The notes under the pieces: model-generated | What the model was told of the DNA's origin: nothing | Seen by the model: only the letters and a program-made list of their open reading frames with translations | Databases searched by the model: none | Shown here: positions 7,517 through 59,990 of the stretch, one piece after another | Layout: each line of letters starts with the position of its first letter | How positions within the stretch are numbered: position 1 is the first letter of the stretch | Position numbers and translations under genes: made by a program | Assembly: GCA_017479385.1 (NCBI GenBank) | Contig: JAFVCE010000006.1 | Location: 1 to 64,000 of the forward strand | DNA length: 64,000 bases | Direction of reading: 5' to 3' | Source: Bacteroidales bacterium | GTDB taxonomy: Bacteria; Bacteroidota; Bacteroidia; Bacteroidales; P3

Positions 7517-7576
7517 TTATCAACACCAATTCGAACAAACAGCATATATCCTGCTGATTTCCAACAACATAAACAA

Positions 7577-7619
7577 GTTGTGGTCGTATTAAGGTCGTAT
7601 TAAGGTCGCCCTGACATCG
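7577..7619 (+). repeat. 11-bp-phased intergenic element, copy A
   Basis: Units: partial TTGTGGTCG, TATTAAGGTCG (7587-7597), TATTAAGGTCG (7598-7608), CCCTGACATCG (7609-7619), followed by CCCACCCTCC. It lies 60 bases after the acyltransferase stop and runs in the same direction as that gene. It shares the ending GACATCGnnCACCCTC with copy B. No CTGAAAATCAG cap is found in register. Confidence 0.85.
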
Positions 7620-8872: not shown

Positions 8873-9342
8873 CCGAACAAAACAAAATCGTGATGAGAGC
8901 CTTACTCGTTGCAGCGGGCATACTGACGGTGGCTCAGGTCGTCATGCTGGTCACCCACGCTGCAGACACATTATGGCTCGCCGCTGTGCTACCAATAAGT
9001 TGTATCGCCATCTGCGCACTGTTGGTAAGCTGCGTGCTGCACCCAGAGACTAACATTCAATACACCCTTCGCAAAAACAAGGACAAAGATGGTCTGAAGT
9101 TCGAAAGAGTGACCTATCCGCCCGACCCTAACGGACTTCGACATATCTCGGCCGGAGTCATTGCACTGCTCATGGCTCTGCTCTTTACCGTCATTGCAGT
9201 CCACCTGGCCTGGCCCGAAACGTTAACCGAAGGCCTACTAACGAAAATCACTATAGCGATTTTGGTAGCTGTTATCATCGTGCTCAACATCATCGAGGGT
9301 CGGCTACAGAGACAACACAAAAACAATACTCAATCCAAATGA
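8869..9342 (+). CDS. Four-helix membrane protein of unknown function
   Basis: The 157-residue product has about four membrane segments: residues 9-28 (MRALLVAAGILTVAQVVML), 35-56 (LWLAAVLPISCIAICALLVSCV), about 94-113 (ISAGVIALLMALLFTVIAVHL) and about 125-143 (ITIAILVAVIIVLNIIEG). Between helices 2 and 3 lies a charged loop. No family is recognised. The ATG at 8869 overlaps the RHH stop and the stop overlaps the natA-like start, so translation is probably coupled. Longer frames from 8809 run through the RHH gene and are rejected. Confidence 0.8.
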   Translation: MTEQNKIVMRALLVAAGILTVAQVVMLVTHAADTLWLAAVLPISCIAICALLVSCVLHPETNIQYTLRKNKDKDGLKFERVTYPPDPNGLRHISAGVIALLMALLFTVIAVHLAWPETLTEGLLTKITIAILVAVIIVLNIIEGRLQRQHKNNTQSK

Positions 9343-10124
9343 CTGACACACAAGAAATTCTGCAAATAGAGGGGCTGAGCAAAACCTTCAACCTCTCTCT
9401 CAAACAGCAAAAAATAGAACGAGCCACCAGCAGGCATAAGGTGGCCGTAGACAACCTAACATTCAGTGCCTACCGTGGCGAGATATTCGGCCTTCTCGGT
9501 CCCAACGGCGCCGGTAAAACAACCACACTGCGTATGCTCTCGACCTTAATACGACCACAACACGGCGATGCCCTGATTGATGGCTACAGCGTGGTAAGCC
9601 AACCCGAACGAGTGCGCGAACGTATTGGATTCCTCACATCTGAGCTCAAACTCGAAGACTTCTTCACCCCTAACTATCTGTTCAACTTCTTCAGCCAACT
9701 ACACCACGTCGACACCACTACGACCGAAGCACGGCGTCGCCAAATGTTCGAACGTTTTGGCATCGACAAATTTGCCGAGGTCAAGGTAGCCAACCTCTCA
9801 ACCGGCATGAAGCAAAAACTGAGCCTAGTAATCTCGCTCGTTCATAACCCAGACATAATCATCTTCGACGAGCCTACCAACGGCCTCGACGTGCTCACAG
9901 CTCGCACCGTAACCGACTACCTGCAAGAACTACGCGCCGAAGGCAAAACCATTATCCTCTCTACACACATCTTCTCGCTCGTGGAGCGCCTTTGCGACCG
10001 TGTAGGCATTATTATCGATGGCCGTATGGTGGCTTGTGGCTCATTAGACGAGGTTTGCAACGGTTTGTCTATCGAAGACCGCTTTTTTGAACTCTACAAA
10101 CAAGTGAAAGGAGACGAGGAATGA
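9339..10124 (+). CDS. ABC exporter ATPase, NatA type
   Basis: The 261-residue ATPase has Walker A GLLGPNGAGKTT, signature LSTGMKQKLSLV, Walker B IIIFDEPTNGLD and switch histidine in ILSTHIFS. It fits the NatA/CcmA class that pairs with ABC-2 permeases. The partner permease starts inside its stop (ATGA, 10121-10124). Sodium efflux is the textbook role of NatAB, but the substrate here is not known. An insert after residue 20 (LKQQKIERATSRHK) precedes the first strand. Confidence 0.92.
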   Translation: MTDTQEILQIEGLSKTFNLSLKQQKIERATSRHKVAVDNLTFSAYRGEIFGLLGPNGAGKTTTLRMLSTLIRPQHGDALIDGYSVVSQPERVRERIGFLTSELKLEDFFTPNYLFNFFSQLHHVDTTTTEARRRQMFERFGIDKFAEVKVANLSTGMKQKLSLVISLVHNPDIIIFDEPTNGLDVLTARTVTDYLQELRAEGKTIILSTHIFSLVERLCDRVGIIIDGRMVACGSLDEVCNGLSIEDRFFELYKQVKGDEE

Positions 10125-16481: not shown

Positions 16482-16525
16482 GGTTAAGGTCGTATTAACA
16501 TCGTCTTAACATCGGGTTGACATCG
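16482..16525 (+). repeat. 11-bp-phased intergenic element, copy B
   Basis: Four exact 11-bp units: GGTTAAGGTCG, TATTAACATCG, TCTTAACATCG, GGTTGACATCG. Upstream, CTGAAAATCAA (16460-16470) and one degenerate unit (16471-16481) keep the same 11-bp register. It is followed by AGCACCCTCTC, like copy A. It lies 53 bases after rlpA and in the same direction. Confidence 0.9.
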
Positions 16526-23832: not shown

Positions 23833-23950
23833 TCGATAAACCCCTCAGTATCAACCATTAAAGACAGCAAAAAGGCCCTAATATCGAGTAGAGGAGGGTA
23901 TGAGGAGCTATTTTTGTCGAATCGTAAACATCTGAATATCAAGGCTTGTT

Positions 23951-24005
23951 CGACCTCAATACGACCTTAACCCCTCCTTAATACGACCTCAACCCTGATT
24001 TTCAG
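23951..24005 (-). repeat. 11-bp-phased intergenic element, copy C
   Basis: Read on the minus strand: cap CTGAAAATCAG (24005-23995), GGTTGAGGTCG, TATTAAGGAGG, GGTTAAGGTCG, TATTGAGGTCG (to 23951), then AACAAGCCTTG in the same register. The layout nearly repeats that of copy G. It lies 91 bases past the tilS stop in the tilS direction, in the convergent porN/tilS gap. Confidence 0.92.
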
Positions 24006-24095: not shown

Positions 24096-25394
24096 CTATT
24101 CTTCGAACACGGCTTCTACGCGCAACACCGAGGCAGTGGCACAGGTCACTCGGTGGTGCTCCGAAGTGCGCAGGCCGATGACCCATAATATTTTTCCGTC
24201 GGCGTCGCAGAGTATATATGTTCGTTCTTTATCGAAGAGATTGATTTTCAGGTCGCTGAGCAGGTCACTGACGAGTTTTGAACCTTTCATGCCAAATGGC
24301 GTAAAGCGGTCGGAGGGTTGCCAGCGCCGCACCTGGAGTGGGAGCGCGAGGGTGCTGGCGTCGAAGTAGGCCGCGAGCTTCGAGCGACGGGCTTCGGCTG
24401 GGTCGAAGTCGGCCGCCTGCAGTTGGGTTAGCACGAGCTTGGGCGGCCTTGCCGGCCGTCCAAGCGGCTCGATGATGAGGCTCTGGCGGTCGCGCAGCAG
24501 GCGGTGGGTGGGCGACTGGAAGAGCCGGCCCGACTCGGCGCCGAGGGCCACCTCTATGTCTGCCACATCGGAGGCGTTGAAGCCATAGGGGCGAAGCAAC
24601 TCGAAGAGCAGCGTGCGGCGTGGCTCGAGCTCGACGAGGGCGGCAATGGGGTAGCTGTGGCGTTGGCCATCGACCACCAGCAGCCTGTCGTGAAGCCTAT
24701 CTACAGCCTGCCGGTAGACCACCTCGGTATCGGACAGGTGAGCGATGGTTCGAGCCAGCGTGGCGTCGAAACCAGGGGACAAGTCGCGCAAAAGGGGCAG
24801 CAGCTGGTGACGGACCTGGTTACGGCGGTAGTCGAGCGAACTGTTGGTTACGTCGGTCACAAATTCTATGCCATGCTGCTCGGCGTATGCCATAATGTCA
24901 GCCCTGCCAAAACCGAGGAGCGGACGCACCACATATCCCGAGCGTGGGCGAATGCCATGCAGGCCAGCAATGCCGGTGCCACGCATGAGGTTGATGAAAA
25001 AGGTCTCGGCCGAGTCGTCGCTGTGGTGGGCGGTTGCAATGGCGGCATAGCCATACCGGACGCGCAGCTGCTCGAAGAAGTCGTAGCGCAGGTTGCGAGC
25101 CGCCTCCTCGATAGAGAGGTGATTTTCAGAGGCATAGTGGCGAGTATCGAAGTGGGCTACATGGAAGCGTGCCCCCATGCGGACAGACAGAGTGCGGACG
25201 AAGAGCTCGTCGCGGTCGCAGTCTCCCGGGCGCAGATTGAAGTTGCAATGGGCCACGCCAAAACGGTAGCCAGCCGCCTGCATGAGGTGGCAGAACACCG
25301 TCGAGTCGACACCGCCGCTAACGGCGAGCAGCACCTCGTCGGTCGGGCCGAAGAGGTGCTGCTGCTCGATGTATTGTTTGAAGCGGGCGAGCAT
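24096..25394 (-). CDS. tilS: tRNA(Ile)-lysidine synthase
   Basis: TilS modifies C34 of the AUA-reading tRNA-Ile to lysidine, which is essential. The 432 residues include the PP-loop LLAVSGGVDSTVFCHLM near residue 20, the downstream RNLRYDFFEQL and IATAHHSDDSAETFFINLMRGTG motifs and the C-terminal TilS domain (RRWQPSDRFTPFGMKGSKLVSDLLSDLKI). Length is typical. Its ATG overlaps the stop of the giant upstream gene by one base (TAATG), so translation may be coupled to the surface-protein gene. Confidence 0.95.
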   Translation of the reverse strand: MLARFKQYIEQQHLFGPTDEVLLAVSGGVDSTVFCHLMQAAGYRFGVAHCNFNLRPGDCDRDELFVRTLSVRMGARFHVAHFDTRHYASENHLSIEEAARNLRYDFFEQLRVRYGYAAIATAHHSDDSAETFFINLMRGTGIAGLHGIRPRSGYVVRPLLGFGRADIMAYAEQHGIEFVTDVTNSSLDYRRNQVRHQLLPLLRDLSPGFDATLARTIAHLSDTEVVYRQAVDRLHDRLLVVDGQRHSYPIAALVELEPRRTLLFELLRPYGFNASDVADIEVALGAESGRLFQSPTHRLLRDRQSLIIEPLGRPARPPKLVLTQLQAADFDPAEARRSKLAAYFDASTLALPLQVRRWQPSDRFTPFGMKGSKLVSDLLSDLKINLFDKERTYILCDADGKILWVIGLRTSEHHRVTCATASVLRVEAVFEE

Positions 25395-28300
25395 TAGTAG
25401 AGAATCATTTTGCGCATTTGGCGCTCGCCGCCATAGCTGATGGCGTAGTAGTACACACCCGAGGCATACTGCGACATATCGAGGTCGATAACGTGGCGGC
25501 CCTCGGGGTAATTGTCTGTCGACTGCTGAACTATGTGGCCCAGAGCGTCGAGCACCATGAAGGTGACTTCGCCCGCGTTGGGTATGGCAAACTCTATGCG
25601 GGTCTCCTTGCGGAAGGGGTTGGGGTAGTTCTGCTCGAGCACGAAGCCGTTGGTTTCTACCTCGGGAATACCGTCTTTGTAGTTCACGACCTCGACCACC
25701 GTGGTCTGGTTGTTGGCAGAATTGCCGTCGCCGGCCATGACAACCGAACCTGTACCCTCGTAGGAGCGAGTCCAGTCTTTGGGCACGGTTTGGTCGAAAA
25801 GTATTGAGTACTTGCGGCGCGGAATCATGTATTCCACTTCGAGGTCCCTGTGGAGCGTTACGCCGTTGACGGTGGCCGAAAGCGAGAGGCGGCGGCCGCT
25901 GATGACCATTGTTCCGCGGTTCTCAAATTCGATGTAAACGCTGTCGTTTTCGCTGCGGTTCTCGACCACAATAACCTTGTTCACAGCTACATCCATATAT
26001 TGCGGAACAATGGCGGTGGTGGTGTCGTTCTTGGGGTTGTTGTCGCCATCGACGTGGACAAAGGCCGTAATGTTGCGCATATCTTCGCGGTTGGTGAAGA
26101 CACGGTTGAACATATGGTAGCCTGTGCCGAGGGCTGGTATGGGCACATCGTTCACGTAGCGTTCAATGACGGCGTTGGCGGTGTCATCGCCAAAGAAGAG
26201 GCCTACTTCGAAGTCGTTGGCACCACGGGCTCCGTCGTTCTCGACGATGAGCGAAACGGTGAAGCCGTCGCTACGCATGGTGTCGAGAACTATAGACTGC
26301 GCCTTGAGATCGTTGATGGAGGTCACGCCCGAGAAGGAGGTCTCGATAGTGTCGTTGAACGGGTAGTCGTCCATCGAGTATGCCGAGTAGGCTTTGATAG
26401 ACATAATGCCGAGCGAGGTGCGCACCTTGTGGCGGAAAGTGTAGTTGAAATATTCCTGGTAGCGCAGCGGGCGACCGAGGAGCGTCATGAGGTTAACGGT
26501 CTCGCGCACAGGCGGTTGACCATTAAACTCGTAGACAACATCGGTGAGGTAAATAGAGTCGAGACCGAAGTTATACATTCGTATGGTAACATCAACCGAG
26601 TCGCCAGCAATGGTGCGGCTATTGGGTTCCACAAACTCCTCCATCTGCAGGTCGTGCTCGAGTGGGGCGAGTATGAAGTAACTACACACCGAGTCGTTCT
26701 CCCAATAAATATCGGTGTTGACGTTGGTGTAGGCGCAGATGGCGAACGTGTCGGGGAACTGGCTGGTAACAATAAACGAGGCGTCGAACTTGAAGAGGTC
26801 TTCGCCATCGGGCGGCAAAATTCCGGTATAGGTACCCATCTTTGACAGGTTGGTACCGAAAGGCTTGTAGGCCAAACTGAATGAGCGGATGGTGTCGTTG
26901 CCATAGTTGTGAACGATGACTTCTGGGCGGATGATTTGGCCATATTTGGGTTCGGTTGGATAGGTGATGGCTACCACGCCCACGTCGACCGGTCGTCGAG
27001 CATGACCAATGGCGAAGTCGTCGAACGCCACACCGTCCAAATAGTTGGTCACCTGCGAGTTACCCTCGTCGGTCTCATATACCATACGGAACTGCGAGAA
27101 CTCGGGGAAGTCGCCCGAAAGGCCAGTTGACGAAGTAGAGAAATAGCACTGCTCGTAGTCGGCGTTGGTGCCATCGAAGTAGTACTGCGGAGCAGCATCG
27201 AGCGGGTCGGGTATGTTGTTATACCAGTGTTCGAGCGAGTCGGCATCGACTTTAGACCAGTAGCCGTCGAAGTTCCAAAATTCCATATACATACGGCTAC
27301 CCTCGCTCATGTTGCGGCGCAACTTGAAGAAGATAGAGTCGGCACGTACCTGCGAGATGTCGAACACCGGCGAGTAGAGGTAGCTGCGGCTGCCCCAATA
27401 ACCAGTGGTGATGGTGGTGGTGAGCATTGTAGACCACGCGTTGGGGGCAGAGTAAGCACTGTCGATACGTGCCTTATGCGGGGTACCAAGTTGCCAGAAG
27501 TTGGTATCGAAGCGCGAGTGCCCACGTGGTGCATACCAAAGGTTCTCGTCGTCGAAGTTGTCGTCGTAGGCAAGAACCAGTATAGGCGAGCGATAGAACT
27601 CGTGCCACATGACGTTATTGGTTGTATCGGCATCGCCATTGGCCAAAGCATTAATTGTCAGCGTGGTTAGGCCCGTCGGGAACTCGTGTTGAGGGAGGGT
27701 GCAGGTGGTAGAGCCTCCTGGGCGCAGGCTGCCCGTCCAGGTGTAGTATATTGTGGTGTCGGCAACATTGGTGTCGGCATAAACATAGTTGCACTCAAAG
27801 CGGACAGAGTCGAGCGGCAACGCGCCGTTGTTAGAAATGCTTATCTTTGGCGAGATAATCGAGTCGGTAATCATGCTCGAATAGGGCGAGACCATACGGT
27901 TGACAGCCACATCGACCCCAGGCTGAGTTTTGTCGTCGTCGACAAAGACCATGAGGTCAATAATGTGGGCGTTGTTGGTGTAGCTGGTAATAGTGGTGTC
28001 GATACCTATAGCTGTATTGCGTATAGTACGCTTGTAGTAGCATGGGCTAATGGTAACGCTTGTGTCGGTAACCATAACGACACGCATACGAGTGAGGCCA
28101 TACGAGGCGTGGTCTGGCACGGTGATGGTGCTGGCAAAGTTGCGGCGTATGGAAGTTGCTTTGCCCCAAGCTGCCACATCGCTGTAGCGACCGGGCACAT
28201 AATTGTTGTTGGTATCTATCTCGAAATTGAACTCGCCATCGCGGTCCCAGTCGACAAAGACTGCAATTTTAACTTGCGTACGAACGTTGCTGGGGGTAAT

Positions 28301-31300
28301 GTTGCTGGCCACGCCGACAATGATAGAGTCGGTCATGCCTCGAGTAACGTGGATTGGTGGGATGACGTAGTTGCCCGTAGCACTATACTTGGCCGTGCGG
28401 TCGGTATAGGTGCGGTAGAGCGGTGGCAGGTTCAGGTCGAGCGAGCCGAACGAGATGCGTGTTATGTTCATTTCGCTCGGTTCGGTCATAGATGGGGTGC
28501 AATACTTGTCTTCGGGGTAGGTGTTGAATTGTTTGTAGGTACGCACCGTGTCGTTGCGGCGCACCATGTCGCCTGGCAATTCGGTGTAGGCGTTGATGCT
28601 GAACCACGTCTCGCGCGAAGGCGTAGAGCTGACGGCAGCCGCGAGGTTGGCCAGTTCTTTGAAGACATAGATGGCTGTATCGCCAGGGGCAATGGTGCCG
28701 GTGTAGGTCTCTTTAACTTTCTGGTATGGGTTGTTGGCGTTGGTACCGTTGCGGTTCATGAGAACATAAGTAATGGGGATATTGCTCTGTGCTGTGGTGC
28801 CGTAGTTGGCAATGCGAACACGAACGGTGTCGTTTTCGGTATAGACGTGAGGCGAATTGGGGGTAATGATTTCTTCGATAGCAATGTCTTTTTCAACACG
28901 TGGTTTGACTTGGACATTCACCGAACCGAAGTCGCTGACACAACGTGTGGTGGTGTTGGTGCATTGTAGGTAGTAGGTCGAGTCGCTGAAATACTGCGGG
29001 GTGTTGCTCCACAACCACGAACTGGTCACAACAGGATTCTGGTAGAAAGGTTTGGTTGTAGTGTCGGGGGCGTAGTACCAGCGAACACCGAGATTCTCGA
29101 TTTGGACGGCGCGCACCTTGCCCCAAGTTCCATAATAGAAACTTGTGTCTTTGCCCTCGGGCTTGGTGGGTTTGTAATCGGAGGTGACGGTGGTGTAGGC
29201 AGAGGTGTCGTTCTCGGGGTGCTTGTCGCCAACATAGGTCATCCAAGTGCGGACGCCGACCTGGATAGCTCTGGCGTTGGGGCCGACAAGGCCAGTGGGA
29301 TAGAGGTTGGCGGTGTGGACTAAGGTAATGGTGTCGGTATCGCCGATGGAGAACATAGAGCTGAAGCGATAGCTCTCGGTGGCAACGGCAGGGATGTTGG
29401 GTACTTCTACGCCAACGGTATGCATTTTGGTTTGGTAGCCGATGGTGGTGGTAGTGCCGGCAGGGATGTCGCGATAGCCCACGTTGGTGACAACCATCTT
29501 GACGGGGTTGCTATCGCGGTAGCAGTTGCGATAGACTTCGGGCACAATGGTGCCAATGGTGGTGATGTTGAAAGCCGGAGCGAGGTAGAAGCGCACATCG
29601 CGCGTGTTGTTCTCGGGCACTTCGTCGCCACTGGTCATGATACTGACGCGGACATATTGCGTGTCGAGCACGCCTACGGGACAGATGAGCTGGACACTGC
29701 CTTCGACAAACGTCTGAGGCAAGAAGTTGGCAATGACCTGAGGCGAAGAGAAGATGTCGGTTCCAACCACTTCGGCCGACCAAACAACGTTGCGTTCGGT
29801 GGCGCTACCGTTGTTATAGAAACTGACGTTGACAGTGATGGTGTCGCCTTCGATGTCGATGGGGTTGGTCACTGTCTTTGGCCACTGAGGATTGGTTATT
29901 TCGACAATCGAAATGTCGTGTGTTGCTGGCAGCATTTCGTGCGCACCGACCGAGGGTTTGCGAAGGGTTGGGCGGATGGAGCCGTCGATGTCGCGCGGCA
30001 CTTCGGAGTTGTAGAGCGCGCGACCGGTCATGTTGGTAACAGTCAGGTGCAGGTCGTCGTCGCCCGCATAGTAGGGGCGTTCTACGACCGACAGAGCTTC
30101 GGTTCCGTGGCGCTCTTGTAGTGTGGCGAGTAGGGTCTCGGTCGGGACGGCTTTGCCGTAGTATACAAGTTTGTTGCTCTCCTCTTCGGCCGTGGAATAG
30201 AAGGCATTATAGTTCGAGGTCGAAATGCTCGTATCCTTCTCAACGTCGTACGCGTAGCCTTGCGCGTAGTTGGATAGGATGTTGTTCATCACCTTGACTT
30301 GGCTGCTGTTTTTGCCCACAAAGAGGGCGTGGGTTGTGGGGAGACTTTGCCCCATACCATTGATGTTGAATGTGTTGTAGTAAATATTTACGTATGATGT
30401 GCTATCAACATACATGGCTGCAGCCGTTGGCTTGGAACCTGTGCCCCTGGTGGTGATGCCTACCATATTATTAATGATGCTGACTGGTTCCTGCATGGTG
30501 CCAGAAATTTGCGACAAACGGAGGCCGATTTTTGTGCTCTGCCATGAGTCGTCGAGATAGACATGGGTCGTATTAACATCTACCTTACCTGCAATAGAGG
30601 TTAAGGTTATGCCTGTTAGGGGGCGACCACTCGCCCTCGACGAAGAGGAGACACTGTTGCCCGCAATGGTTAGGTTATAAACGTCGTTTAATACCAAACC
30701 AGCTTTGAGGAAGTTTGTAATTTGGTTGTTCGTAATGACGATATTCCTGATACCAATAGCCGAGTCTGCAGTTGTGATGGCAAAGTAGCCACTGTCTACG
30801 GTTGAGTTCTCGAGCGTGAAGTCGACAACATTGCTGCGAAGCACAACGGCCGATGCTGTTGAGCGCGGTGCAAAGTCGCCTGCCGAATTGAGGTCTCCTT
30901 TGCCAACTTTTATGTTACACTCGTTGAGGGTGACGCTGTCCGAATTTTCTATCACCACCGAGTTGACGTAACTCAGGTTTTCCTTGGTGTTGCCCTGCGC
31001 TATAGAGCGGAAGGTAATACCGGTGAAGGTTATCTTGTTGCTATTATTAATATATAGTATATAGTTCTCATCCGGGGTGGTGGTTTGGCTGACCAAGACT
31101 TCGCCCAAAGCAGTGAACGATATAGCGTTGGTGGCGTTGCCACTGATGTTGTCGATGACGATATGCTCGTGATAAGTTCCAGGCATAACATTGAAGTTGA
31201 CCGGACCAGAGATACCAACGAGGTTCAGCGTATCGATGGCTTGGTTGAAGGTTGCGAATTGCTCGTTGACGCCAATGGTGTAGCTTCCACTGCAGAAGCT

Positions 31301-34300
31301 TACATTGAGCGTAGCCTCGATAGTGTCGTTGGTGTTGATGGTGTCGCCTTCGACGACGAGGTAAGCTCTGACGCTGTGACGACCGGGGAGCAGTGGGGTC
31401 GAGATGAGCGGCACGGTTGCAATCTCTGACGAGGCCAAGTTGATACCTGTCACGGTGTTGGTTTCGTATTCGCCACCGTCTACCGAGTAGTGCAGTTCGT
31501 AGCCAGTGATTGACTGTCGTCCGAGGTTGCGAACATTGACGTCGAGCGTGGAGTTGCTGCACGATGAAATCTCGATTGGACGAGTCTCGGTTGTCCACGA
31601 CACCATTGCGTCAATATCTGGCACACCTGTAAGGGTGACATCGATACGCGAAGGCTCGCTCTCGCACGAGTAGGCTTTCATCACAAATCTCATGCTTGGG
31701 CGATAGGTAGAGAGGGTTCCTGCCGCAGCTGAGGCGTAGATAGAGTTGGTGCCCGATGTGGATGTTGCATAGAGCGAACGTGACACTGGAGAACTGATGT
31801 AGGCCATCGAAACACCGCTCGTGTTGCGGCTTTCGCAAATATGCCAATCTTGAATAACAATGCTCGACTCGCCATCCCACTCGAAAGGTTCGGAAAACTC
31901 GTAGGTAATCCAGCCGTGGCTGTTGGGCAGGCCGTCGGTATTGCCGTCGTATGTGGTAACACTGTAGTTGGAATCTATATAATAGTCTTCAACCTGCTTC
32001 CAGTCGGTCGTTGAGCTGAAGACAGTGTCGGTCGTTGTGCCAAGACTGATGGCAAACTGCTTGAAGGTGTTGATTTTGTTCGACCTAATTTCGTCCAAAT
32101 AGTAAGATATTGACGATATTAATCCTGGCTGCAGGCCCATGTCGTACAACTCTTTGGCGGTGATGATGTATTGACCTTTCGATTGGAGGTTGTAAGACTG
32201 CCAGGGGTTGGGGTAACGAGGCTCACGGTTGGCCGTTACTTGGATAGAATCGCCGATTTGCCCCTTGTAAAGTTGCAAGTTTTGCTGCGAGACGAAGAAA
32301 GTATCGTCGATGTAAAGATAGTCTGAAGTAAAACTAAAACCTGTGGACAGTCTGTCCATTCTTTTGTTGTACCATATAGGCATCGAGGTCTCGTTTTCGG
32401 GCAGCGACAGCGTGAGGTGTTGCGCATAGTCGGCAATCACGTTCTGCTCCACTTCGGGTGCGGGGAGGGTGAATCGAGACTCTACCGATATGTTGAGTAT
32501 GTCGTTGTGGCGAACTAAATCGCCCCTGACAGAGTCGACCCACACAGTGATGTTAAAGGTAGTGTCGTCGTCGCGCTTCATATTGAGCAGATGGCTGAAG
32601 GTGTGGATGTGCTCGTCATGGACAGCAATACCATCGGCAATGGTATCGACATAGGATTCGTTGCCGGTACTGTAATGCACGAAAACCGAGTCGGAATGCT
32701 CCAGACCGTAGTTATTGATTTTCACCGTGATAGGCTCTTCACCCAGACCACAGCCGCTGTTTATGTCGAGGTCATACAGCTCGATGTCGGCAAGTGGTAC
32801 ATTGATTACATCGACCTGTATTTCGCCCAAATCGCCACGGCAACCGTTCTCGGAATAGAGGAAGAGGTTCGTGTCTGAAACGCCAGGGGTGAGACGGTGG
32901 TCGTTCGAGGCCATAATCCAATGGCGAGCCGAATTGGCAGGGGTTGCGTTGGGGTCGGGCCACGACGTTCTGATAACACCTGCAGGTGCAGTTGCCGGCA
33001 TTGCAATTCCGGCGCCAGCCCAGATATGGTTCGGTACGTTGAGGTTGGCCCAACGCGAATTGCTCGTAATGTTGTTTAGCGGGACAACGTCGTCAATCAA
33101 ACCGTCGTGATAGTAAAGGAAAGCGACATCGGTCTTGATTGGCATTTGTGGAACCTCGTTGGCATCGCCAGCAATGAGGGCCGAGGGGTGGTCGTTGCGC
33201 GAAGTTTTTGCCCACTGGACAACGATGCTCTGCCCTGGTTCTACGGTTATGTTCGGGAAATTGAACTCCTTATTATTATATGTCTCCGTGGCGGAGAAGG
33301 TCTTAAGCTGGTCGCCGTACATATTGGCTGGGGCCGAGCCGACGTTGGTGAGCATGACAGCCGTCTGAGTATTGGAACTATAGTAGGCTGGCACGGTTGC
33401 TGGCAGACCTACCACGTTGGCTTTACGGATTTGGACTTGGGTGATACGCATTAGCGGTATAGCGCGACGTTGCTCGACATAGTAGGTCGTTGCGTCACGC
33501 AGGGGGGGAGTTTGGTAGGTGGAGCCGACGGCGATTGGTTCTTCGTCGTCGGGACTGGCGAACCAGTAGACCTCGGAATTGGCTTTGTCGCCAATATTAT
33601 AAACGTGGCGAGGCCATTGCAGGATGCCACGATTGGCGGTGAGTTGGATGGAGTCGCCATAGTTGACGGAGGTAACGTAGCCAGTCGGGGCCGAAGCGTG
33701 GTAGCGGCTGACTATGGTGAACTCGCTGGTGTCGTTGGTGTGGTTGGGGTCGAGCGACGACTCAACCCAGACTTTGATGTGGTGGACCGAGTCAAGCTGC
33801 CCAGCCGGTGGCAGGTAGAGCATGATACCTGTCGAGAAAGCTATTGAGTCTTCGGCACCGACAGTGGCATCGACGAGTGCGGTCTTGGTTGGACCATTGT
33901 TGAGCTTGAAGTAGACTTTAATATCGGCGCCAGATGTGTCGGGGTCGTAGACGTAGACTCCGATATTACGTAGCGAGGGGATGAACTCGACTTGGTCGGG
34001 AACGGCGCAGTAGTTGGTGAGGGGTTCGTAGAGCGATGAGATGACAAAGTCGTACTGGAGCGTGGTGAACTCGAAGGCTCCGATGCACGATGTGTCAGGG
34101 TTGCGGGGGGTGCCAAACATATCGGTCGTAACCGAGGCCACTGGGAGGCCAACGCCTTTGATGGCGCGGTTGTAGGTGCGGAGGTCGGCGTTGTAGGCGT
34201 TGAGGAAGTCGGGTTTGAAGACGAACGAGGCTGTGTCGGATGGCACACGAGACTGCCATTGTGACAGTGTGGCACAGTTATTGATATCATTATAGCGGCA

Positions 34301-37300
34301 GAGGGTGTTGCCCGAGGCGAAGTAGATGTTGTGGCCGAAAGTGACGGTAGTTGCATTGAGTGGGGCGAAGCTGAGCGCGAAGTTGTTGGGGTCGAAAACG
34401 ACGAACATATTGTTGAGCACTCGGGTGTTGGCCAGTTCGGAGCCTGTTGCACCGATGACCGCAGCCGGCACATTGACGCGAGTTGGCGCCGAGAGTTTTA
34501 CCGAGTTGTAGACCACATCTATCCAGTTGGTGTTGAGGATATTGAGCGGGGTCATCTGGCTGATAGCCGAACCGTCGTCCTTGATTTCAATCATGTTGTT
34601 GGCTATGACGCCTGGGTGGTCCTCGGTGCCCTCGATGTCGGAGGCTGCCAACGCGCCAGCGCCACGGGTGATGAAGATGCTGTTGCTTTCGACTACCGGG
34701 CCACCGTCGCAGTATTGCAGACTGAGCAGGTAGCGGTCGTTGGTTTGAGCGTCGGCAATGACGTTGTGAGAAATGATGGGCGAGGTCTGGGCTGTGACGG
34801 TGAGTGCCGCGAAAGCCGGATTGTCGAACAGGCAGTTAGTGACCTGGTTGTGCAGGGCGCGCATATCGGTTGCTTCGCCAGCCAGCCACAGCTGGACTTG
34901 GCCACGGGTGAAGGTGCAACTGTCGAAGACTATAGAGTCGGCGCCGCCCGTGTTGACCAGCGTCGCCATTTGTGCCGCCTGATTGTCGGTGAACTGACAG
35001 GTGACAAAATGGCAGTCGGTGGCAGTCGGTTCGAAATAGAGCAGCCCCTTGAGCGGTTCCGAGGCGTAGACGTGGCCATCGACGGTGATTGTAGGCACCT
35101 CCTCGCGTGTGGCGAAGTCGATACCGGTGAAATAGACGTGGCGAGCCTTGCTTAGGTCGACCAGATATTCGTCGCCATACGAGTTATAGAATGTCACTCC
35201 GCCCTCTTTGGCACGGAAGTTGACATAGTTTTCTGGGGAGAGTCCATTGACATAAGGCATCGCGAAACTGGTGTACTCGCCTGGTGCCAAATAGACATTG
35301 AGTATTGAATCGACGCCGCAACGGGCGAGCACGAACAGGAAGTGCTCGATGTTGTCGTAGTCGGCGTTCGGGTAGCCGATGGTGATTTCGCCACTCATCG
35401 GGCCGGCACACGAGATGAAGTCTGTAGTGGCAGTGTCGTTGTAGGGCTCATAGTCGCGAATGCGGCTGGAGCCACACTCGATGGTGTCTTCGGTCCAAGC
35501 AATGAGCGAGTGGAAACCCTCCTCGGTGTGGAGGGTGTTGGTGATGGTCACCAGCTCGGTCTCGTTGGCGTCGAGGCTGCCCGTCCAGTCATAGTATTGC
35601 GTGCCCGTACCGTCCACATCGAACGCTATGCGTGCCTTGGTGAGGGTTCTGACACCGAAGTTGCGCAGTCTGACCACTATTTGCTCGTCGGGCGCGGTGG
35701 TGGTAGCCACATCGAAATTGGGGTACACAATCGAGTCGATACCGGCATCGCAGTATAGTGGCAGGTTCGCTTGCGATTCGAAACCGAAGAAAGGTTTCCA
35801 TTCATCGAGACTTGTAGCTTGTAAGAAACCTGTCGAGGTGTAGGGGTCATCGAACTGTCCAGCCTGCTTGCCGAGATAGTAGATAGTGACCTTATCAGGC
35901 GTTATGGGGATGGTTACAACCCCAATCGGCGCAGAGTAGTTGCTTCCGACTTCATCGTTGTAGAGCATCTGAACCACGAGGTCTTCGCCAGCATAGGCAA
36001 ACGTATCGGTAAACTGTATGGTTTTCTCGCTATACTGGGCTCCTGCGGGGCAGAACCAGTCGCCAGAATAGACGTCGCTTGCGTCGGCCGTATACATTCT
36101 ATCGCTGTTTATGTTCGTATAGGTGGCGGGCTTATTCTTCATCCTGACGGTAAAGTTGTAGCGCGTCTGGTCTTGGGCCAACACATCCGACAGCTTGAAA
36201 GTGAGCGATGTGAGCGACCCTGGACCGAAGCCATGCTCCTGCATAAAAGCCTTGCTGTATACAAATTCGCTTCGGTTGTCGCCGTAGAATGGGAATGGGT
36301 AGGTTATCGACGACCCGATAGCACTAAGGTCGAGGCGGTTGTTCTCGTCGCCCACATAGCTCTTGTTGGCTTTGCCACGGGCGTAGCGGAATTCTACGCG
36401 ACCCGTCTCGCTTGCGGGATAGGTAGCCATGTTCTCGTTGCGGCTGGCGTCGCGCGCCACAAGGTGGAAACGCATAAGGGTGTCGTAGCCATGGAAGGGT
36501 ATGACAGCCGAGTAGAGCCCTTGGCTGCCAGCCACCGAGTCGAGCCTCACGGTGTCTTCATGTGTGGGGTTGGTACCAACCGAATAGGAGACATAGAGCG
36601 AGTCGGGGTTGAGGGGTGACGCCACAGACGACTCCAGTTTGGCCAATACCTTGGCGCCGCGGCTGTTGGGGTAGATTCCCGCATCGGGGAACGACAACAT
36701 ATTGATAACCGGGGCCTTGATGGGGTCTTGGCTGGCTTTGACGCTGATGGCGTCTATCCACCAACCGGTGCCGTCGGCCGTGCCTTCTAAACGTTTGTTG
36801 ACCACAAACTTGAACTGCAACTTGCGGTTGGCTTGCGACACACTGTTGAGCACCGTGTTGATTTCGAAACGTTCATGGCGCCAATAGTCGTTAACCATCT
36901 CGCTCGATTTCCAGTCGCCATACGAATCGCACGAAAACGAGTAGGTACCGCCACTGAGCACCGAGCCCTGATAGTACTGGTAGTTGAGGATTGTCCAGTT
37001 GGTCTGGTCCGGGCGCTTCATATAGACCGTTGCCACACGGTTACGGTCTTCGAGGTTGGCACGCAGACTGAGGTTACAGATGTGGTCGAACTCGAGCACT
37101 ATGTAGGTCAGCGCCATATTTTGCGAGAAGTCGATGGTGTCGGTAATCAACTCTACCGTGGCGCCAGTGCGCTGAACGAGCTTGATAGACTGCGCACCAT
37201 CGGTGTGGAGCTCGCCGTCCATCGAATAGGTAGAACCGGTCGAGAGCGTGTAGTGCCGATTGGTTGCGTCTTCGAAGTCTTCGGAGTACATCTGGTAAAT

Positions 37301-37366
37301 TTGGGCACGCAGCGGGAGGGCCGCCATAGCAAAAATCAAGCCAAAAACTACAAATACCTTTTTCAT
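25394..37366 (-). CDS. Giant T9SS-secreted multidomain surface protein (3990 aa)
   Basis: This single frame gives 3990 residues from ATG 37366 (an ATG four codons upstream is possible). A signal peptide (VFVVFGLIFAMAALPLRAQ) is followed by a jelly-roll-like domain (about 25-200), beta-sandwich regions, a right-handed beta-helix (about 730-1105), a lamin-tail-like domain (about 1300-1490), a second beta-helix (about 2050-2470), several CARDB-like modules starting with phrases such as DIAIEEIITPNSP and DVGVVAITYPTEP, a GEVED-like domain (VFVDWDRDGEFNF, about 2970-3165), another jelly-roll (about 3255-3455) and a type A T9SS sorting domain (YPNPFRKETRIEF ... GVYYYAISYGGE, last 80 residues). Probably an adhesin or glycan-binding surface protein. 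Domain limits are estimates by eye. Confidence 0.92.
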   Translation of the reverse strand: MKKVFVVFGLIFAMAALPLRAQIYQMYSEDFEDATNRHYTLSTGSTYSMDGELHTDGAQSIKLVQRTGATVELITDTIDFSQNMALTYIVLEFDHICNLSLRANLEDRNRVATVYMKRPDQTNWTILNYQYYQGSVLSGGTYSFSCDSYGDWKSSEMVNDYWRHERFEINTVLNSVSQANRKLQFKFVVNKRLEGTADGTGWWIDAISVKASQDPIKAPVINMLSFPDAGIYPNSRGAKVLAKLESSVASPLNPDSLYVSYSVGTNPTHEDTVRLDSVAGSQGLYSAVIPFHGYDTLMRFHLVARDASRNENMATYPASETGRVEFRYARGKANKSYVGDENNRLDLSAIGSSITYPFPFYGDNRSEFVYSKAFMQEHGFGPGSLTSLTFKLSDVLAQDQTRYNFTVRMKNKPATYTNINSDRMYTADASDVYSGDWFCPAGAQYSEKTIQFTDTFAYAGEDLVVQMLYNDEVGSNYSAPIGVVTIPITPDKVTIYYLGKQAGQFDDPYTSTGFLQATSLDEWKPFFGFESQANLPLYCDAGIDSIVYPNFDVATTTAPDEQIVVRLRNFGVRTLTKARIAFDVDGTGTQYYDWTGSLDANETELVTITNTLHTEEGFHSLIAWTEDTIECGSSRIRDYEPYNDTATTDFISCAGPMSGEITIGYPNADYDNIEHFLFVLARCGVDSILNVYLAPGEYTSFAMPYVNGLSPENYVNFRAKEGGVTFYNSYGDEYLVDLSKARHVYFTGIDFATREEVPTITVDGHVYASEPLKGLLYFEPTATDCHFVTCQFTDNQAAQMATLVNTGGADSIVFDSCTFTRGQVQLWLAGEATDMRALHNQVTNCLFDNPAFAALTVTAQTSPIISHNVIADAQTNDRYLLSLQYCDGGPVVESNSIFITRGAGALAASDIEGTEDHPGVIANNMIEIKDDGSAISQMTPLNILNTNWIDVVYNSVKLSAPTRVNVPAAVIGATGSELANTRVLNNMFVVFDPNNFALSFAPLNATTVTFGHNIYFASGNTLCRYNDINNCATLSQWQSRVPSDTASFVFKPDFLNAYNADLRTYNRAIKGVGLPVASVTTDMFGTPRNPDTSCIGAFEFTTLQYDFVISSLYEPLTNYCAVPDQVEFIPSLRNIGVYVYDPDTSGADIKVYFKLNNGPTKTALVDATVGAEDSIAFSTGIMLYLPPAGQLDSVHHIKVWVESSLDPNHTNDTSEFTIVSRYHASAPTGYVTSVNYGDSIQLTANRGILQWPRHVYNIGDKANSEVYWFASPDDEEPIAVGSTYQTPPLRDATTYYVEQRRAIPLMRITQVQIRKANVVGLPATVPAYYSSNTQTAVMLTNVGSAPANMYGDQLKTFSATETYNNKEFNFPNITVEPGQSIVVQWAKTSRNDHPSALIAGDANEVPQMPIKTDVAFLYYHDGLIDDVVPLNNITSNSRWANLNVPNHIWAGAGIAMPATAPAGVIRTSWPDPNATPANSARHWIMASNDHRLTPGVSDTNLFLYSENGCRGDLGEIQVDVINVPLADIELYDLDINSGCGLGEEPITVKINNYGLEHSDSVFVHYSTGNESYVDTIADGIAVHDEHIHTFSHLLNMKRDDDTTFNITVWVDSVRGDLVRHNDILNISVESRFTLPAPEVEQNVIADYAQHLTLSLPENETSMPIWYNKRMDRLSTGFSFTSDYLYIDDTFFVSQQNLQLYKGQIGDSIQVTANREPRYPNPWQSYNLQSKGQYIITAKELYDMGLQPGLISSISYYLDEIRSNKINTFKQFAISLGTTTDTVFSSTTDWKQVEDYYIDSNYSVTTYDGNTDGLPNSHGWITYEFSEPFEWDGESSIVIQDWHICESRNTSGVSMAYISSPVSRSLYATSTSGTNSIYASAAAGTLSTYRPSMRFVMKAYSCESEPSRIDVTLTGVPDIDAMVSWTTETRPIEISSCSNSTLDVNVRNLGRQSITGYELHYSVDGGEYETNTVTGINLASSEIATVPLISTPLLPGRHSVRAYLVVEGDTINTNDTIEATLNVSFCSGSYTIGVNEQFATFNQAIDTLNLVGISGPVNFNVMPGTYHEHIVIDNISGNATNAISFTALGEVLVSQTTTPDENYILYINNSNKITFTGITFRSIAQGNTKENLSYVNSVVIENSDSVTLNECNIKVGKGDLNSAGDFAPRSTASAVVLRSNVVDFTLENSTVDSGYFAITTADSAIGIRNIVITNNQITNFLKAGLVLNDVYNLTIAGNSVSSSSRASGRPLTGITLTSIAGKVDVNTTHVYLDDSWQSTKIGLRLSQISGTMQEPVSIINNMVGITTRGTGSKPTAAAMYVDSTSYVNIYYNTFNINGMGQSLPTTHALFVGKNSSQVKVMNNILSNYAQGYAYDVEKDTSISTSNYNAFYSTAEEESNKLVYYGKAVPTETLLATLQERHGTEALSVVERPYYAGDDDLHLTVTNMTGRALYNSEVPRDIDGSIRPTLRKPSVGAHEMLPATHDISIVEITNPQWPKTVTNPIDIEGDTITVNVSFYNNGSATERNVVWSAEVVGTDIFSSPQVIANFLPQTFVEGSVQLICPVGVLDTQYVRVSIMTSGDEVPENNTRDVRFYLAPAFNITTIGTIVPEVYRNCYRDSNPVKMVVTNVGYRDIPAGTTTTIGYQTKMHTVGVEVPNIPAVATESYRFSSMFSIGDTDTITLVHTANLYPTGLVGPNARAIQVGVRTWMTYVGDKHPENDTSAYTTVTSDYKPTKPEGKDTSFYYGTWGKVRAVQIENLGVRWYYAPDTTTKPFYQNPVVTSSWLWSNTPQYFSDSTYYLQCTNTTTRCVSDFGSVNVQVKPRVEKDIAIEEIITPNSPHVYTENDTVRVRIANYGTTAQSNIPITYVLMNRNGTNANNPYQKVKETYTGTIAPGDTAIYVFKELANLAAAVSSTPSRETWFSINAYTELPGDMVRRNDTVRTYKQFNTYPEDKYCTPSMTEPSEMNITRISFGSLDLNLPPLYRTYTDRTAKYSATGNYVIPPIHVTRGMTDSIIVGVASNITPSNVRTQVKIAVFVDWDRDGEFNFEIDTNNNYVPGRYSDVAAWGKATSIRRNFASTITVPDHASYGLTRMRVVMVTDTSVTISPCYYKRTIRNTAIGIDTTITSYTNNAHIIDLMVFVDDDKTQPGVDVAVNRMVSPYSSMITDSIISPKISISNNGALPLDSVRFECNYVYADTNVADTTIYYTWTGSLRPGGSTTCTLPQHEFPTGLTTLTINALANGDADTTNNVMWHEFYRSPILVLAYDDNFDDENLWYAPRGHSRFDTNFWQLGTPHKARIDSAYSAPNAWSTMLTTTITTGYWGSRSYLYSPVFDISQVRADSIFFKLRRNMSEGSRMYMEFWNFDGYWSKVDADSLEHWYNNIPDPLDAAPQYYFDGTNADYEQCYFSTSSTGLSGDFPEFSQFRMVYETDEGNSQVTNYLDGVAFDDFAIGHARRPVDVGVVAITYPTEPKYGQIIRPEVIVHNYGNDTIRSFSLAYKPFGTNLSKMGTYTGILPPDGEDLFKFDASFIVTSQFPDTFAICAYTNVNTDIYWENDSVCSYFILAPLEHDLQMEEFVEPNSRTIAGDSVDVTIRMYNFGLDSIYLTDVVYEFNGQPPVRETVNLMTLLGRPLRYQEYFNYTFRHKVRTSLGIMSIKAYSAYSMDDYPFNDTIETSFSGVTSINDLKAQSIVLDTMRSDGFTVSLIVENDGARGANDFEVGLFFGDDTANAVIERYVNDVPIPALGTGYHMFNRVFTNREDMRNITAFVHVDGDNNPKNDTTTAIVPQYMDVAVNKVIVVENRSENDSVYIEFENRGTMVISGRRLSLSATVNGVTLHRDLEVEYMIPRRKYSILFDQTVPKDWTRSYEGTGSVVMAGDGNSANNQTTVVEVVNYKDGIPEVETNGFVLEQNYPNPFRKETRIEFAIPNAGEVTFMVLDALGHIVQQSTDNYPEGRHVIDLDMSQYASGVYYYAISYGGERQMRKMILY

Positions 37367-37457
37367 CGGGTGTATCATACTATGTGTCTTATTTTCAATT
37401 GTTTATCATTCGTTAAAAGGTATCCGCGACCCATCTGTCGGGACACAAAAAGCGATA

Positions 37458-37897: not shown

Positions 37898-37963
37898 CGA
37901 CCTTAGGGCGATGTTAATACGACCTCAACACGACCCTAACCCCTCTACAATACTGATTTTCAG
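37898..37963 (-). repeat. 11-bp-phased intergenic element, copy D
   Basis: Read on the minus strand: cap CTGAAAATCAG (37963-37953), TATTGTAGAGG, GGTTAGGGTCG, TGTTGAGGTCG, TATTAACATCG, CCCTAAGGTCG (to 37898). Five units plus cap, all in strict 11-bp register. It lies 3' of the rlmB-like gene, in its direction, and before the giant-gene promoter. Confidence 0.92.
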
Positions 37964-45374: not shown

Positions 45375-45440
45375 TTAAAAATCAAGGTCAAGGAGGTATT
45401 AAAGAGGGGTTAAGGTCGTATTGAGGTCGAACAACGCTTG
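45375..45440 (+). repeat. 11-bp-phased intergenic element, copy E
   Basis: Degenerate cap TTAAAAATCAA (45375-45385), then GGTCAAGGAGG, TATTAAAGAGG, GGTTAAGGTCG, TATTGAGGTCG (to 45429) and AACAACGCTTG, followed by ATACTGAGGCC, all in 11-bp register. It lies 3' of the addA-like gene and in its direction. Confidence 0.9.
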
Positions 45441-45569
45441 ATACTGAGGCCTTTAGCCCTCGATTTTTCACCCTCACTAACCCCATTCACACCCCACCCA
45501 TCACCCACACCATCATACACAAAAAACGCCCAAACTGCAAAAAAAAAACGACGAGTGAAAAAAAAATTG

Positions 45570-50660: not shown

Positions 50661-50704
50661 CCCTAAGGAGGGGTTAAGGAGGGGTTAAGGTCGTATTAAC
50701 ATCG
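50661..50704 (+). repeat. 11-bp-phased intergenic element, copy F
   Basis: Four units: CCCTAAGGAGG, GGTTAAGGAGG, GGTTAAGGTCG, TATTAACATCG, then AAGTATGAACAAG. It lies 54 bases past the dppC-like stop, in its direction. No in-register cap is seen. Confidence 0.88.
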
Positions 50705-59670: not shown

Positions 59671-59704
59671 GCCAAAACCCCGAAAAATACCCCCTCTCAA
59701 ATGG

Positions 59705-59781
59705 CTGAAAATCAGGGTTGAGGAGGGGTTAAAGAGGGGTTAAGGTCGTATTGAGGTCGAACAAGCATTGATACTGAGCCA
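59705..59781 (+). repeat. 11-bp-phased intergenic element, copy G (best copy)
   Basis: Seven 11-bp blocks in one register: CTGAAAATCAG, GGTTGAGGAGG, GGTTAAAGAGG, GGTTAAGGTCG, TATTGAGGTCG, AACAAGCATTG, ATACTGAGCCA. It lies 35 bases after the tRNA terminator and in the tRNA direction. Copies C and E share the same order of blocks. Confidence 0.93.
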
Positions 59782-59990
59782 CTTAAACCACAATTTTTGC
59801 CCAATTTTTGCTGCTCGCCTGCCCGATTTCTACCCCCACGCCGAGCCTCGGCAAGAGCACTTTTGGCCGAACCCAAACCCTTGTTGCCACCTTTTTGAAG
59901 GTTTTTTAAGAAAAGAAATGTTAAATTTTCATCGGCACACAATATTTTGCCATTTTTTGAGTTTTAATAGCAGTAAGAAACCAAAACCCA
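59782..59990 (+). other. Intergenic stretch before the 54-residue ORF
   Basis: About 210 bases without a convincing gene; with the tRNA terminator and copy G it fills the gap between tRNA-Val and the small ORF. A near -7 box (TATTTTG, 59943-59949) lies 41 bases before ATG 59991, one base short of the consensus. Confidence 0.4.

What the first reader, a model, noticed from the sequence alone, without database searches (positions are those of the whole stretch)
59705..59781. A family of intergenic elements built from 11-bp units in strict register
Seven intergenic sites (7577-7619, 16482-16525, 23951-24005, 37898-37963, 45375-45440, 50661-50704, 59705-59781) consist of consecutive 11-bp units of the form (GG/TA)TTRA(GG/CA/AG)(T/A)(C/G)G. 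I aligned each copy base by base; no unit has an insertion or deletion, while the bases vary. Conserving the 11-bp step more than the sequence suggests selection on spacing, about one helical turn in DNA, or a fixed step along RNA. The period is not a multiple of three, so it is not coding. It does not match CRISPR, REP/BIME or iteron arrays that I know.
Basis: partly seen in the sequence, partly recalled or inferred. Interest (0 to 1): 0.88.

Follow-up and report, generated by a model that had tools for sequence, protein, structure and literature searches.

The report
Evenly spaced 11-base DNA arrays
An uncultured gut-bacterium genus carries short blocks of tandem 11-letter DNA units at fairly even intervals along its chromosomes; related species keep the 11-letter step but use quite different letters, which suggests that the step and the spacing, not the sequence, are what is kept.

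Summary
The seven sites are real. They belong to a genome-wide set (about 265 by extrapolation) of short arrays, usually four 11-bp units without indels: 88 in 754 kb, 0 in the reversed control. (1) Arrays are spaced too evenly: gap CV 0.48 against 0.89±0.08 for class-matched sites, 0 of 500 draws. Thirteen of 88 lie inside genes, mid-gap between the others (P 0.003-0.010); some were written in place without length change, two long ones are insertions. (2) Other species of the genus have arrays of unrelated or partly shared units but the same period: 67 non-coding arrays of period 11 in 13 species, 0 in 62 loci of other genera. (3) In G028 two unrelated families keep one joint spacing (P=0.0035; G010 only P=0.057). 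So period and spacing persist while sequence turns over. Best reading: a helically phased protein-docking array, one binding domain per turn, used as a chromosome-domain site. No protein is identified; function is inferred. REP/BIME and co-evolving RNA hairpin fail tests, MITE fits poorly; uptake-sequence drive is the main rival. The convergent-gene bias is not genus-wide.

The parts
59697..59715 (+). 5' arm of the alpha element (inverted partner of the 3' arm in consensus), ending in the 11-mer CTGAAAATCAG
59716..59759 (+). array of four 11-bp units (GGTTGAGGAGG GGTTAAAGAGG GGTTAAGGTCG TATTGAGGTCG)
59760..59785 (+). 3' arm AACAAGCATTGATACTGAGCCACTTA
45375..45385 (+). 5' arm of alpha element
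45386..45429 (+). array of four 11-bp units upstream of the methylmalonyl-CoA mutase gene; 5 of 18 named relatives have an 11-bp array of other unit sequence at this place
45430..45455 (+). 3' arm of alpha element
23951..23994 (-). array of four 11-bp units between convergent genes
23995..24005 (-). 5' arm of alpha element (CTGAAAATCAG on the minus strand)
23925..23950 (-). 3' arm of alpha element
37898..37952 (-). array of five 11-bp units, beta type (ends without the 3' arm)
37953..37963 (-). 5' 11-mer CTGAAAATCAG of the beta element
50661..50704 (+). array of four 11-bp units, beta type, between convergent genes
16482..16525 (+). array of four 11-bp units, beta type
7576..7619 (+). array of four 11-bp units, beta type (first unit starts one base before the stated 7577)
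9541..9562 (-). weak two-unit array inside an ABC-type ATPase gene (9339-10124, plus strand); no gap at the array against 19 of 20 homologues, most of them distant

Best explanation
Each array is a DNA-level docking site. A multimeric DNA-binding protein (or paralogues) places one binding domain on each 11-bp unit, so that all domains lie on one face of the helix. Selection acts on two things: the one-turn step, and the presence of one site per interval of several kb (means 6.5 to 12 kb in the species with enough sites), for example to wrap, bridge or anchor DNA and bound chromosomal domains. The base specificity is free to drift, so units turn over between species while step and spacing stay. 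SHOWN: period, even spacing in five species, sequence turnover, joint spacing of two families in one species, in-place sites in genes. INFERRED: the protein, the wrapping or bridging, the domain role.
For: Period 11 dominates non-coding arrays in the own genome (29; next 2 at the harmonic 22) and in 13 other species (67; next 40 at harmonic 22, 21 at period 7), 0 in 62 loci of other genera. Even spacing: own CV 0.48 vs 0.89, 0 of 500 draws; CV against random intergenic draws: G134 profile sites 0.28, 0 of 5000; G028 0.31, P at most 0.0006; G012 P 0.004-0.007; G010 P 0.002-0.013. The two families of G028 stay at least 5.7 kb apart, P=0.0035. In-gene arrays sit a median 5.0 kb from the nearest other array vs 2.7 kb for random gene positions, P 0.010. 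In-place writing: CoaE array without gap in 24 of 29 homologues, with family residues exchanged. Pattern matches fall on both strands about equally, 316 vs 294. The arms do not covary, which points to recognition of DNA. Precedents for the geometry: CarH tetramers bind three or four tandem 11-bp repeats (PMC9304148, passages), PhoP 11-bp units (PMC2605767, passage), ParR of R1 needs at least two 11-bp repeats (PMC9426499, passages).
Against: No protein was identified; only two partner families were looked for at all (Y1 transposase, ParM) besides ComEC. Heterogeneous units within one genome (G061 4 clusters among 5 arrays; G073 and G117 3 of 3) are awkward for one sequence-specific protein. 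With the generic scan spacing is not even in G070 (8 sites, CV 1.01) or G061 (5 sites, CV 0.76), and C1 of the own genome has gaps of 24 and 27 kb. By the share of gaps under 4 kb the evenness is weaker in G010 (P 0.03-0.18) and G012 (P 0.03-0.06). Family exclusion in G010 is only P=0.057.
Confidence: 0.42

Rival explanations
1. Uptake-sequence drive: the arrays are recognised on incoming DNA, and recombination of preferentially taken-up DNA spreads them by point replacement, as for USS/DUS. One site per transferred fragment suffices, which would give even spacing, in-gene copies and species dialects.
For: In-place substitution in genes, both strands, frequent inverted pairs in relatives, species-specific units, even spacing. 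ComEC domain in 34 of 41 genus genomes searched, own included. Uptake sequences show no orientation bias, lie partly in ORFs and were reported as evenly spaced by one group (PMC1939737, passages).
Against: Two unrelated families in one genome sharing one spacing rule and heterogeneous units within one genome are not expected from one receptor. ComEC also rings in 10 of 14 control genomes, so it says little. [quoted passage not shown] Unit length and density (1 per 8-9 kb) differ.
Confidence: 0.22
2. Sequence-blind mechanical site: any unit repeated at one helical turn gives coherent curvature, which pins plectoneme tips and so places supercoils at even intervals.
For: A wedge model gives high predicted bend for random units at period 10 or 11 (mean percentile 0.77) and lower for 7-9 and 12-14 (0.05-0.45); real arrays 0.74, column-permuted arrays 0.61. 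Plectoneme pinning by curvature over about 70 bp (PMC6301789, passages); an about 11-bp period is commonly tied to negatively supercoiled DNA (PMC4132750, passages). Explains heterogeneous units and joint spacing of families.
Against: The model favours 10 as much as 11, and period 10 is almost absent. Homogeneous families within the own genome, G134 and G012 are unexplained. Arrays of G134, G003, G088 and G084 are not especially curved (medians 0.53, 0.46, 0.11, 0.13). Wedge parameters were recalled.
Confidence: 0.16
3. Non-autonomous mobile element (MITE-like, as BrickBuilt) carrying a minisatellite and inverted ends, with target immunity giving the spacing.
For: Own alpha copies have arms that are inverted in consensus; families are homogeneous in some genomes; intergenic preference; two long in-gene arrays are insertions against the one homologue each that I hold; one G134 intergenic region is 216 bp longer than the own one, which lacks an array.
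Against: Several in-gene arrays show no length change; beta copies lack the 3' arm; spacing exclusion acts across unrelated families in G028; the period is 11 across families. Target duplications and empty sites were not looked for.
Confidence: 0.1
4. Transcription terminator or 3'-end RNA element.
For: In the own genome 40 of 88 arrays lie between convergent genes and 3 of 88 between divergent ones; many arrays of relatives are inverted pairs able to fold.
Against: Pooled over 13 other species there are 19 arrays on 79 divergent regions and 18 on 55 convergent ones, 8 of the 18 from G134 alone; own arms show no covariation and no G-T over A-C excess; arrays inside genes; even spacing.
Confidence: 0.06

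Closest known systems
CarH, PhoP and ParR/parC operator or centromere arrays of 11-bp direct repeats
   Same: Two or more tandem 11-bp units bound by one multimeric protein, period set by the protein (passages).
   Different: Those sit at particular loci; here about 265 fairly evenly spaced sites per genome (extrapolated), with units changing between species. No cognate protein known.
DNA uptake sequences (USS/DUS)
   Same: Genome-wide, no strand bias, in-gene copies by substitution, some inverted pairs, reported even spacing (PMC1939737, passages); species dialects (recalled).
   Different: USS/DUS are short single motifs, 1,471 and 1,965 counted in two genomes; here tandem 11-bp arrays about 1 per 8-9 kb, more than one family per genome in some species.
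BrickBuilt MITE of Porphyromonas gingivalis (PMC4596501)
   Same: Intergenic Bacteroidales element of tandem units with leader and tail bearing inverted repeats (abstract and passages).
   Different: 23-nt units, 19 copies in ATCC 33277, reported from strains of one species; no even spacing or in-gene copies in what I read.
REP/BIME elements
   Same: Own copies favour convergent and co-directional regions and are rare in divergent ones (the BIME distribution is recalled).
   Different: No palindromic unit, no Y1 transposase in own genome or G134, fixed 11-bp step, in-gene copies.

Membership tests
REP/BIME | Associated Y1 (RAYT-type) transposase in the genome | tested here: not met
   PF01797: none in G000, G134 or G061; one each in G113 and G003 (2 of 5 genomes)
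REP/BIME | Palindromic unit able to form a stem by itself | tested here: not met
   Own units are direct repeats; the arms do not covary
MITE (BrickBuilt-like) | Copies arise by insertion | tested here: inconclusive
   Of 13 in-gene arrays 7 had a homologue spanning the array. No gap: CoaE 24 of 29, ABC ATPase 19 of 20, C17 115446 1 of 1, C5 223065 2 of 2, C1 100973 1 of 1 (26% identity). Insertion: C1 115665 and C5 78434, 1 of 1 each
MITE (BrickBuilt-like) | Terminal inverted repeats on all full copies | tested here: not met
   62 alpha copies (chosen by units 3-4 and the start of the 3' side) share an inverted arm motif in consensus; beta copies and, by eye, in-gene arrays lack the 3' arm
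MITE (BrickBuilt-like) | Target-site duplications | not tested
   no call
DNA uptake sequence | No orientation bias, copies in genes by substitution, even spacing | tested here: met
   two in-gene arrays are insertions instead
DNA uptake sequence | Competence machinery | tested here: inconclusive
   ComEC domain in 34 of 41 genomes, own included, but also in 10 of 14 control genomes; no other competence gene sought
DNA uptake sequence | Enhances DNA uptake | not testable with these tools
   needs a culture
CRISPR array | Unique spacers between repeats | tested here: not met
   Units are contiguous
ParMRC centromere | ParM-type partner gene | tested here: inconclusive
   PF06406: 0 of 5 genomes, but the 14 control genomes were silent too
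CarH/PhoP/ParR-type operator array | Two or more tandem 11-bp units | tested here: met
CarH/PhoP/ParR-type operator array | Bound by a cognate protein | not testable with these tools
   no protein identified

The most novel reading that the evidence does not exclude
A chromosome-wide lattice in which the helical step itself is the conserved signal: evenly spaced 11-bp-phased arrays whose sequence is replaced again and again while period and spacing are kept, acting as many dispersed attachment or supercoil-anchoring sites, a holocentric-like or nucleosome-array-like organisation of a bacterial chromosome.
Probability: 0.33. Interest if true: 0.93.

Novelty: categorically new. Interest (0 to 1): 0.85.

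Why it matters
If right, it is a natural experiment showing that DNA phase and spacing can be under selection apart from sequence, and it offers a sequence-readable map of intervals of several kb in bacterial chromosomes. That would make a standing question, whether bacterial chromosomes have encoded domain sites, directly testable by Hi-C, ChIP and supercoiling assays. If it is instead uptake drive, it would be a multi-unit form of uptake sequence in Bacteroidales, which I have not seen described.

Tried and rejected
RNA hairpin in the arms: by eye the arms of alpha copies looked compensatory. Tested on 62 copies compared at fixed offsets (register chosen for best pairing), pairing per position equals the shuffled expectation (lowest P 0.031 at one of 28 positions, the next 0.094) and G-T is not favoured over A-C; rejected.

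Convergent-gene marker as the general rule: strong in the own genome (40 of 88 arrays; 46 such regions of at least 120 bp) and in G134 (8 of 10 sites), but pooled over 13 other species there are 18 sites on 55 convergent regions, 19 on 79 divergent and 39 on 248 co-directional ones; without G134, 10 on 41, 19 on 62 and 38 on 210. Rejected as genus-wide.

REP/RAYT: no Y1 transposase in own or G134. Mobile cargo: three unit patterns have 0 exact matches in viral contigs; the window element has no match in plasmids or phages. An exact 34-base pattern had none in genome contigs; records of the own genome may be left out there. Rfam at gathering scores gives only tRNA-Val in the window.

Curvature alone: period 10 would do as well as 11. 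The wedge parameters are recalled; so are the names USS dialects and iterons and the BIME distribution. The StbA_N search is uninformative because the controls were silent. Synteny of own and G134 gave only 10 adjacent pairs, one of them with an array, in G134 alone. The first impression that relatives lack the element (0 of 60 relatives; G113 and G134 were not among them) came from searching by sequence rather than by period.

Dropped rows: runs of N counted as arrays (G117, G010, G070) were excluded from then on. One search leaves out two of the 15 'inside' arrays (C1 60736, C5 368333) that overlap only a gene end. Searches use two different home-made gene callers and a third, cruder mask; no outside annotation was at hand.

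Full report
OBSERVATION. The seven sites in the window are real and break into contiguous 11-bp units without indels. One stated start is off by one base (7576). In the own genome (2,277,571 bp, 24 contigs; window = C17:1-64000) a two-unit pattern with up to three mismatches has 356 matches and its reversed control 0; a looser pattern has 610 against 3, 316 on one strand and 294 on the other. I took contigs C5, C1 and C17 (753.7 kb with the window) and scanned them with an 11-column profile: 88 arrays, 0 in the reversed sequence. The same profile has 0 hits in 1,074 kb of other genera, 0 in 326 kb of 18 genus-like named loci and 0 in 620 kb of twelve other species of the genus; G134, with a related family, has 17. 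By extrapolation the genome holds about 265 arrays.

ANATOMY. Of 52 arrays listed on C5 and the window, 36 have four units by the script's extension rule, 10 have five, 2 have three, 3 have two and 1 has eight. In the alpha type the array is flanked by a 5' arm ending in CTGAAAATCAG and a 3' arm AACAAGCNTTGATANTCAGNCANTTA; I collected 62 copies by a pattern for units 3-4 and the start of the 3' side and compared them at fixed offsets. Units 3 and 4 and the start of the 3' arm are nearly invariant, in part because they were selected on; unit 1 is loose. The beta type ends in TATTAACATCG or similar units and lacks the 3' arm. The arms are inverted copies of one motif in consensus, but across the 62 copies they do not covary: pairing equals the shuffled expectation and G-T is not favoured over A-C. 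My first impression of compensatory change was wrong; the arms look like two DNA-recognition sites, not an RNA stem.

SPACING. The 85 gaps between arrays have mean 8.7 kb and CV 0.48; 3.5% are under 4 kb. Sites drawn from the same classes of region give CV 0.89 and 33% under 4 kb; 0 of 500 draws reach the observed values. Per contig the CV is 0.35 (C5), 0.65 (C1, with gaps of 24 and 27 kb) and 0.48 (C17).

CONTEXT. With a home-made gene caller, 40 of 88 arrays lie between convergent genes, 28 between co-directional ones, 3 between divergent ones, 15 inside predicted genes and 2 at contig ends; regions of at least 120 bp on offer are 46, 110 and 48. I count 13 of the 15 as truly inside genes; they sit in the middle of gaps, median 5.0 kb from the nearest other array against 2.7 kb for random gene positions (P 0.010 for the median, 0.003 and 0.004 for two other measures). 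The best case is CoaE, with a five-unit array: compared with 29 orthologues (of 55 other genomes with a match among 58 searched), there is no gap at the array in 24 of 29, and own CoaE has exchanged residues that the family keeps. C17 115446 and C5 223065, with homologues of 53-80% identity, are also in place, as is the ABC ATPase array in the window (19 of 20, only two of the listed homologues being close, 76-78%); C1 100973 has no gap against its only homologue, of 26% identity. Two long in-gene arrays (C5 78434, eight units; C1 115665, with a 33-bp repeat) are insertions against the one homologue each that I hold. Four in-gene arrays had hits that did not span the array and two had no hit. 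So arrays can be written in place and can also grow by duplication.

THE GENUS. Sequence searches suggested a species-specific family: 0 of 60 relatives by DNA similarity (G113 and G134 not among them); of 98 other genomes the own pattern is in clear excess in G113 (54 against 5) and slightly in G003 (12 against 2); with another pattern, of 119 others, G134 has 90 against 1, and G061, G003 and G113 14-18 against 1-4. Searching by period changed this. In G012, G061 and others there are arrays of other unit sequences with the same period. Counting non-coding arrays (at least 24 of 33 matches) at every period from 5 to 30: own genome 29 at period 11, then 2 at 22; 13 other species 67 at 11 and 40 at its harmonic 22, then 21 at 7; 12 of these 13 species have at least one at 11. 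Eighteen named genus-like loci (nearest name Candidatus Colimorpha; placed by identity of one gene, 65-71%) have 13 at period 11 in 7 of 18 loci, and 9 at period 9 in 2. Sixty-two named loci of other genera (1,074 kb) have 0 at period 11 but 20 at 7, 15 at 8 and 6 at 22. First-order Markov resampling of four contigs gives 0 or 1.

TURNOVER OF SEQUENCE AT ONE PLACE. Upstream of the methylmalonyl-CoA mutase gene the own element (45375-45440) has counterparts in 5 of 18 named loci: L201 and L203 (CTACCAACTCC), L210 (CCAGCCGTCTA and CTGAAGAACTA), L211 (GGACCGGAGGG type), L214 (AACGAGCGAAT type); L208 has a 9-bp array there, and 12 of 18 have neither at this threshold (L209 is cut short there). In L201, L203, L210 and L211 the neighbouring gene is inverted, so the region is divergent there. 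Downstream of the 49501-50607 gene, own, L204 and L205 have arrays of three different units.

ONE SPACING RULE FOR DIFFERENT FAMILIES. In G028 (158.7 kb) two unrelated families, 10 and 8 sites, interleave with joint mean gap 8.9 kb, CV 0.31, minimum 5.7 kb; rotating one against the other reaches that minimum distance in 0.35% of 20,000 trials. In G010 the same test gives P=0.057. Against random draws from intergenic regions the gap CV is too low in G028 (P at most 0.0006), G134 with its own profile (0 of 5000), G012 (0.004-0.007) and G010 (0.002-0.013); by the share of gaps under 4 kb the result is weaker in G010 (0.03-0.18) and G012 (0.03-0.06). Spacing is not even in G070 (CV 1.01, 8 sites) and G061 (CV 0.76, 5 sites) with the generic scan, which misses arrays: for G134 it gives 15 sites and CV 0.58, the profile 22 sites in 180 kb and CV 0.28. 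Mean gaps run from 6.5 kb (G010) to 12 kb (G012) in the evenly spaced species. In some species nearly every array has its own unit, though few arrays were seen (G061 4 clusters among 5, G073 and G117 3 of 3). Unit families are not wholly unrelated between species: GGAGTTG recurs in G012, G028, G117 and G070, GAAGAAC in G028, G095 and L210 (read).

MECHANISM. What stays is the step of 11 and the spacing; what goes is the sequence. A step of one turn, a few units and DNA-level recognition fit a multimeric protein with one domain per turn; CarH tetramers on three or four tandem 11-bp repeats (PMC9304148, passages), PhoP (PMC2605767, passage) and ParR of R1 (PMC9426499, passages) are precedents for the geometry. 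The spacing rule and the mid-gap in-gene sites suggest that each interval of several kb needs one. That the arrays bound chromosomal domains is inference. Uptake drive as for USS/DUS explains much, and even spacing has been reported for those, though the same paper says they are not as even as a compaction role would need (PMC1939737, passages); it does not explain two families under one rule. A purely mechanical site is possible: in a wedge model with recalled parameters any unit repeated at 10 or 11 bp bends strongly, and curvature over about 70 bp pins plectonemes (PMC6301789, passages), but this does not prefer 11 to 10, and arrays of some species are not predicted to be curved. Bacterial genomes at large show a periodic bias near 11 bp in nucleotide use, commonly read as a supercoiling signal (PMC4132750, passages); that is a statistical bias, not discrete arrays.

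NOVELTY. In the ten paper searches made I saw no account of such arrays in listings or passages; only open-licence PMC papers were searched. BrickBuilt (PMC4596501, abstract and passages) is the nearest Bacteroidales element that I saw and differs in unit length, copy number and range.

LIMITS. Gene calling is home-made; genomes are drafts; one genome per species, so no strain comparison; contigs were sampled, not whole genomes. Function is not shown.

Noticed in passing
25394-37378 (minus): A single open frame of 3,994 aa; the profile finds no array inside it, and the arrays on either side are 14 kb apart.
   Followed up: no
13 of the 62 loci of other genera (among L216-L280) and G012, G064, G070, G073, G084, G117: Tandem arrays of period 7 in non-coding DNA (20 in other genera, 21 in these six species), and also of 8, 14 and 21; perhaps a parallel phenomenon with another step.
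   Followed up: partly
L208, within 330 bases upstream of the mutase gene that starts at 7404: A long 9-bp array with TCTAGA in each unit at the place where other species have 11-bp arrays.
   Followed up: no
L055 12174-12761 (own C5:252174-252761): Own CoaE carries an array that replaces residues the family keeps; the enzyme may be altered there.
   Followed up: partly
own C5:78413-78500 and C1 near 115665: Long arrays inside genes that add residues against a homologue; the C1 one shows a 33-bp repeat, that is three units in frame.
   Followed up: partly
L099-L128 (G134): A conserved inverted repeat CTGAAAACCAGCCTGTTG...CAACAGGCTGGTTTTCA upstream of many G134 arrays; TGAAAATCA-type motifs recur near some arrays in other species. 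Not counted.
   Followed up: no
own C5 alpha copies near 25128, 102061, 130049: A few alpha copies have TTATCGATAA-like sequence at their outer ends.
   Followed up: no
20325-22001 (plus): GldM-type protein of the type IX secretion / gliding system.
   Followed up: no
L159 (G003) and L160 (G113): Single Y1 transposase genes in two species of the genus.
   Followed up: no
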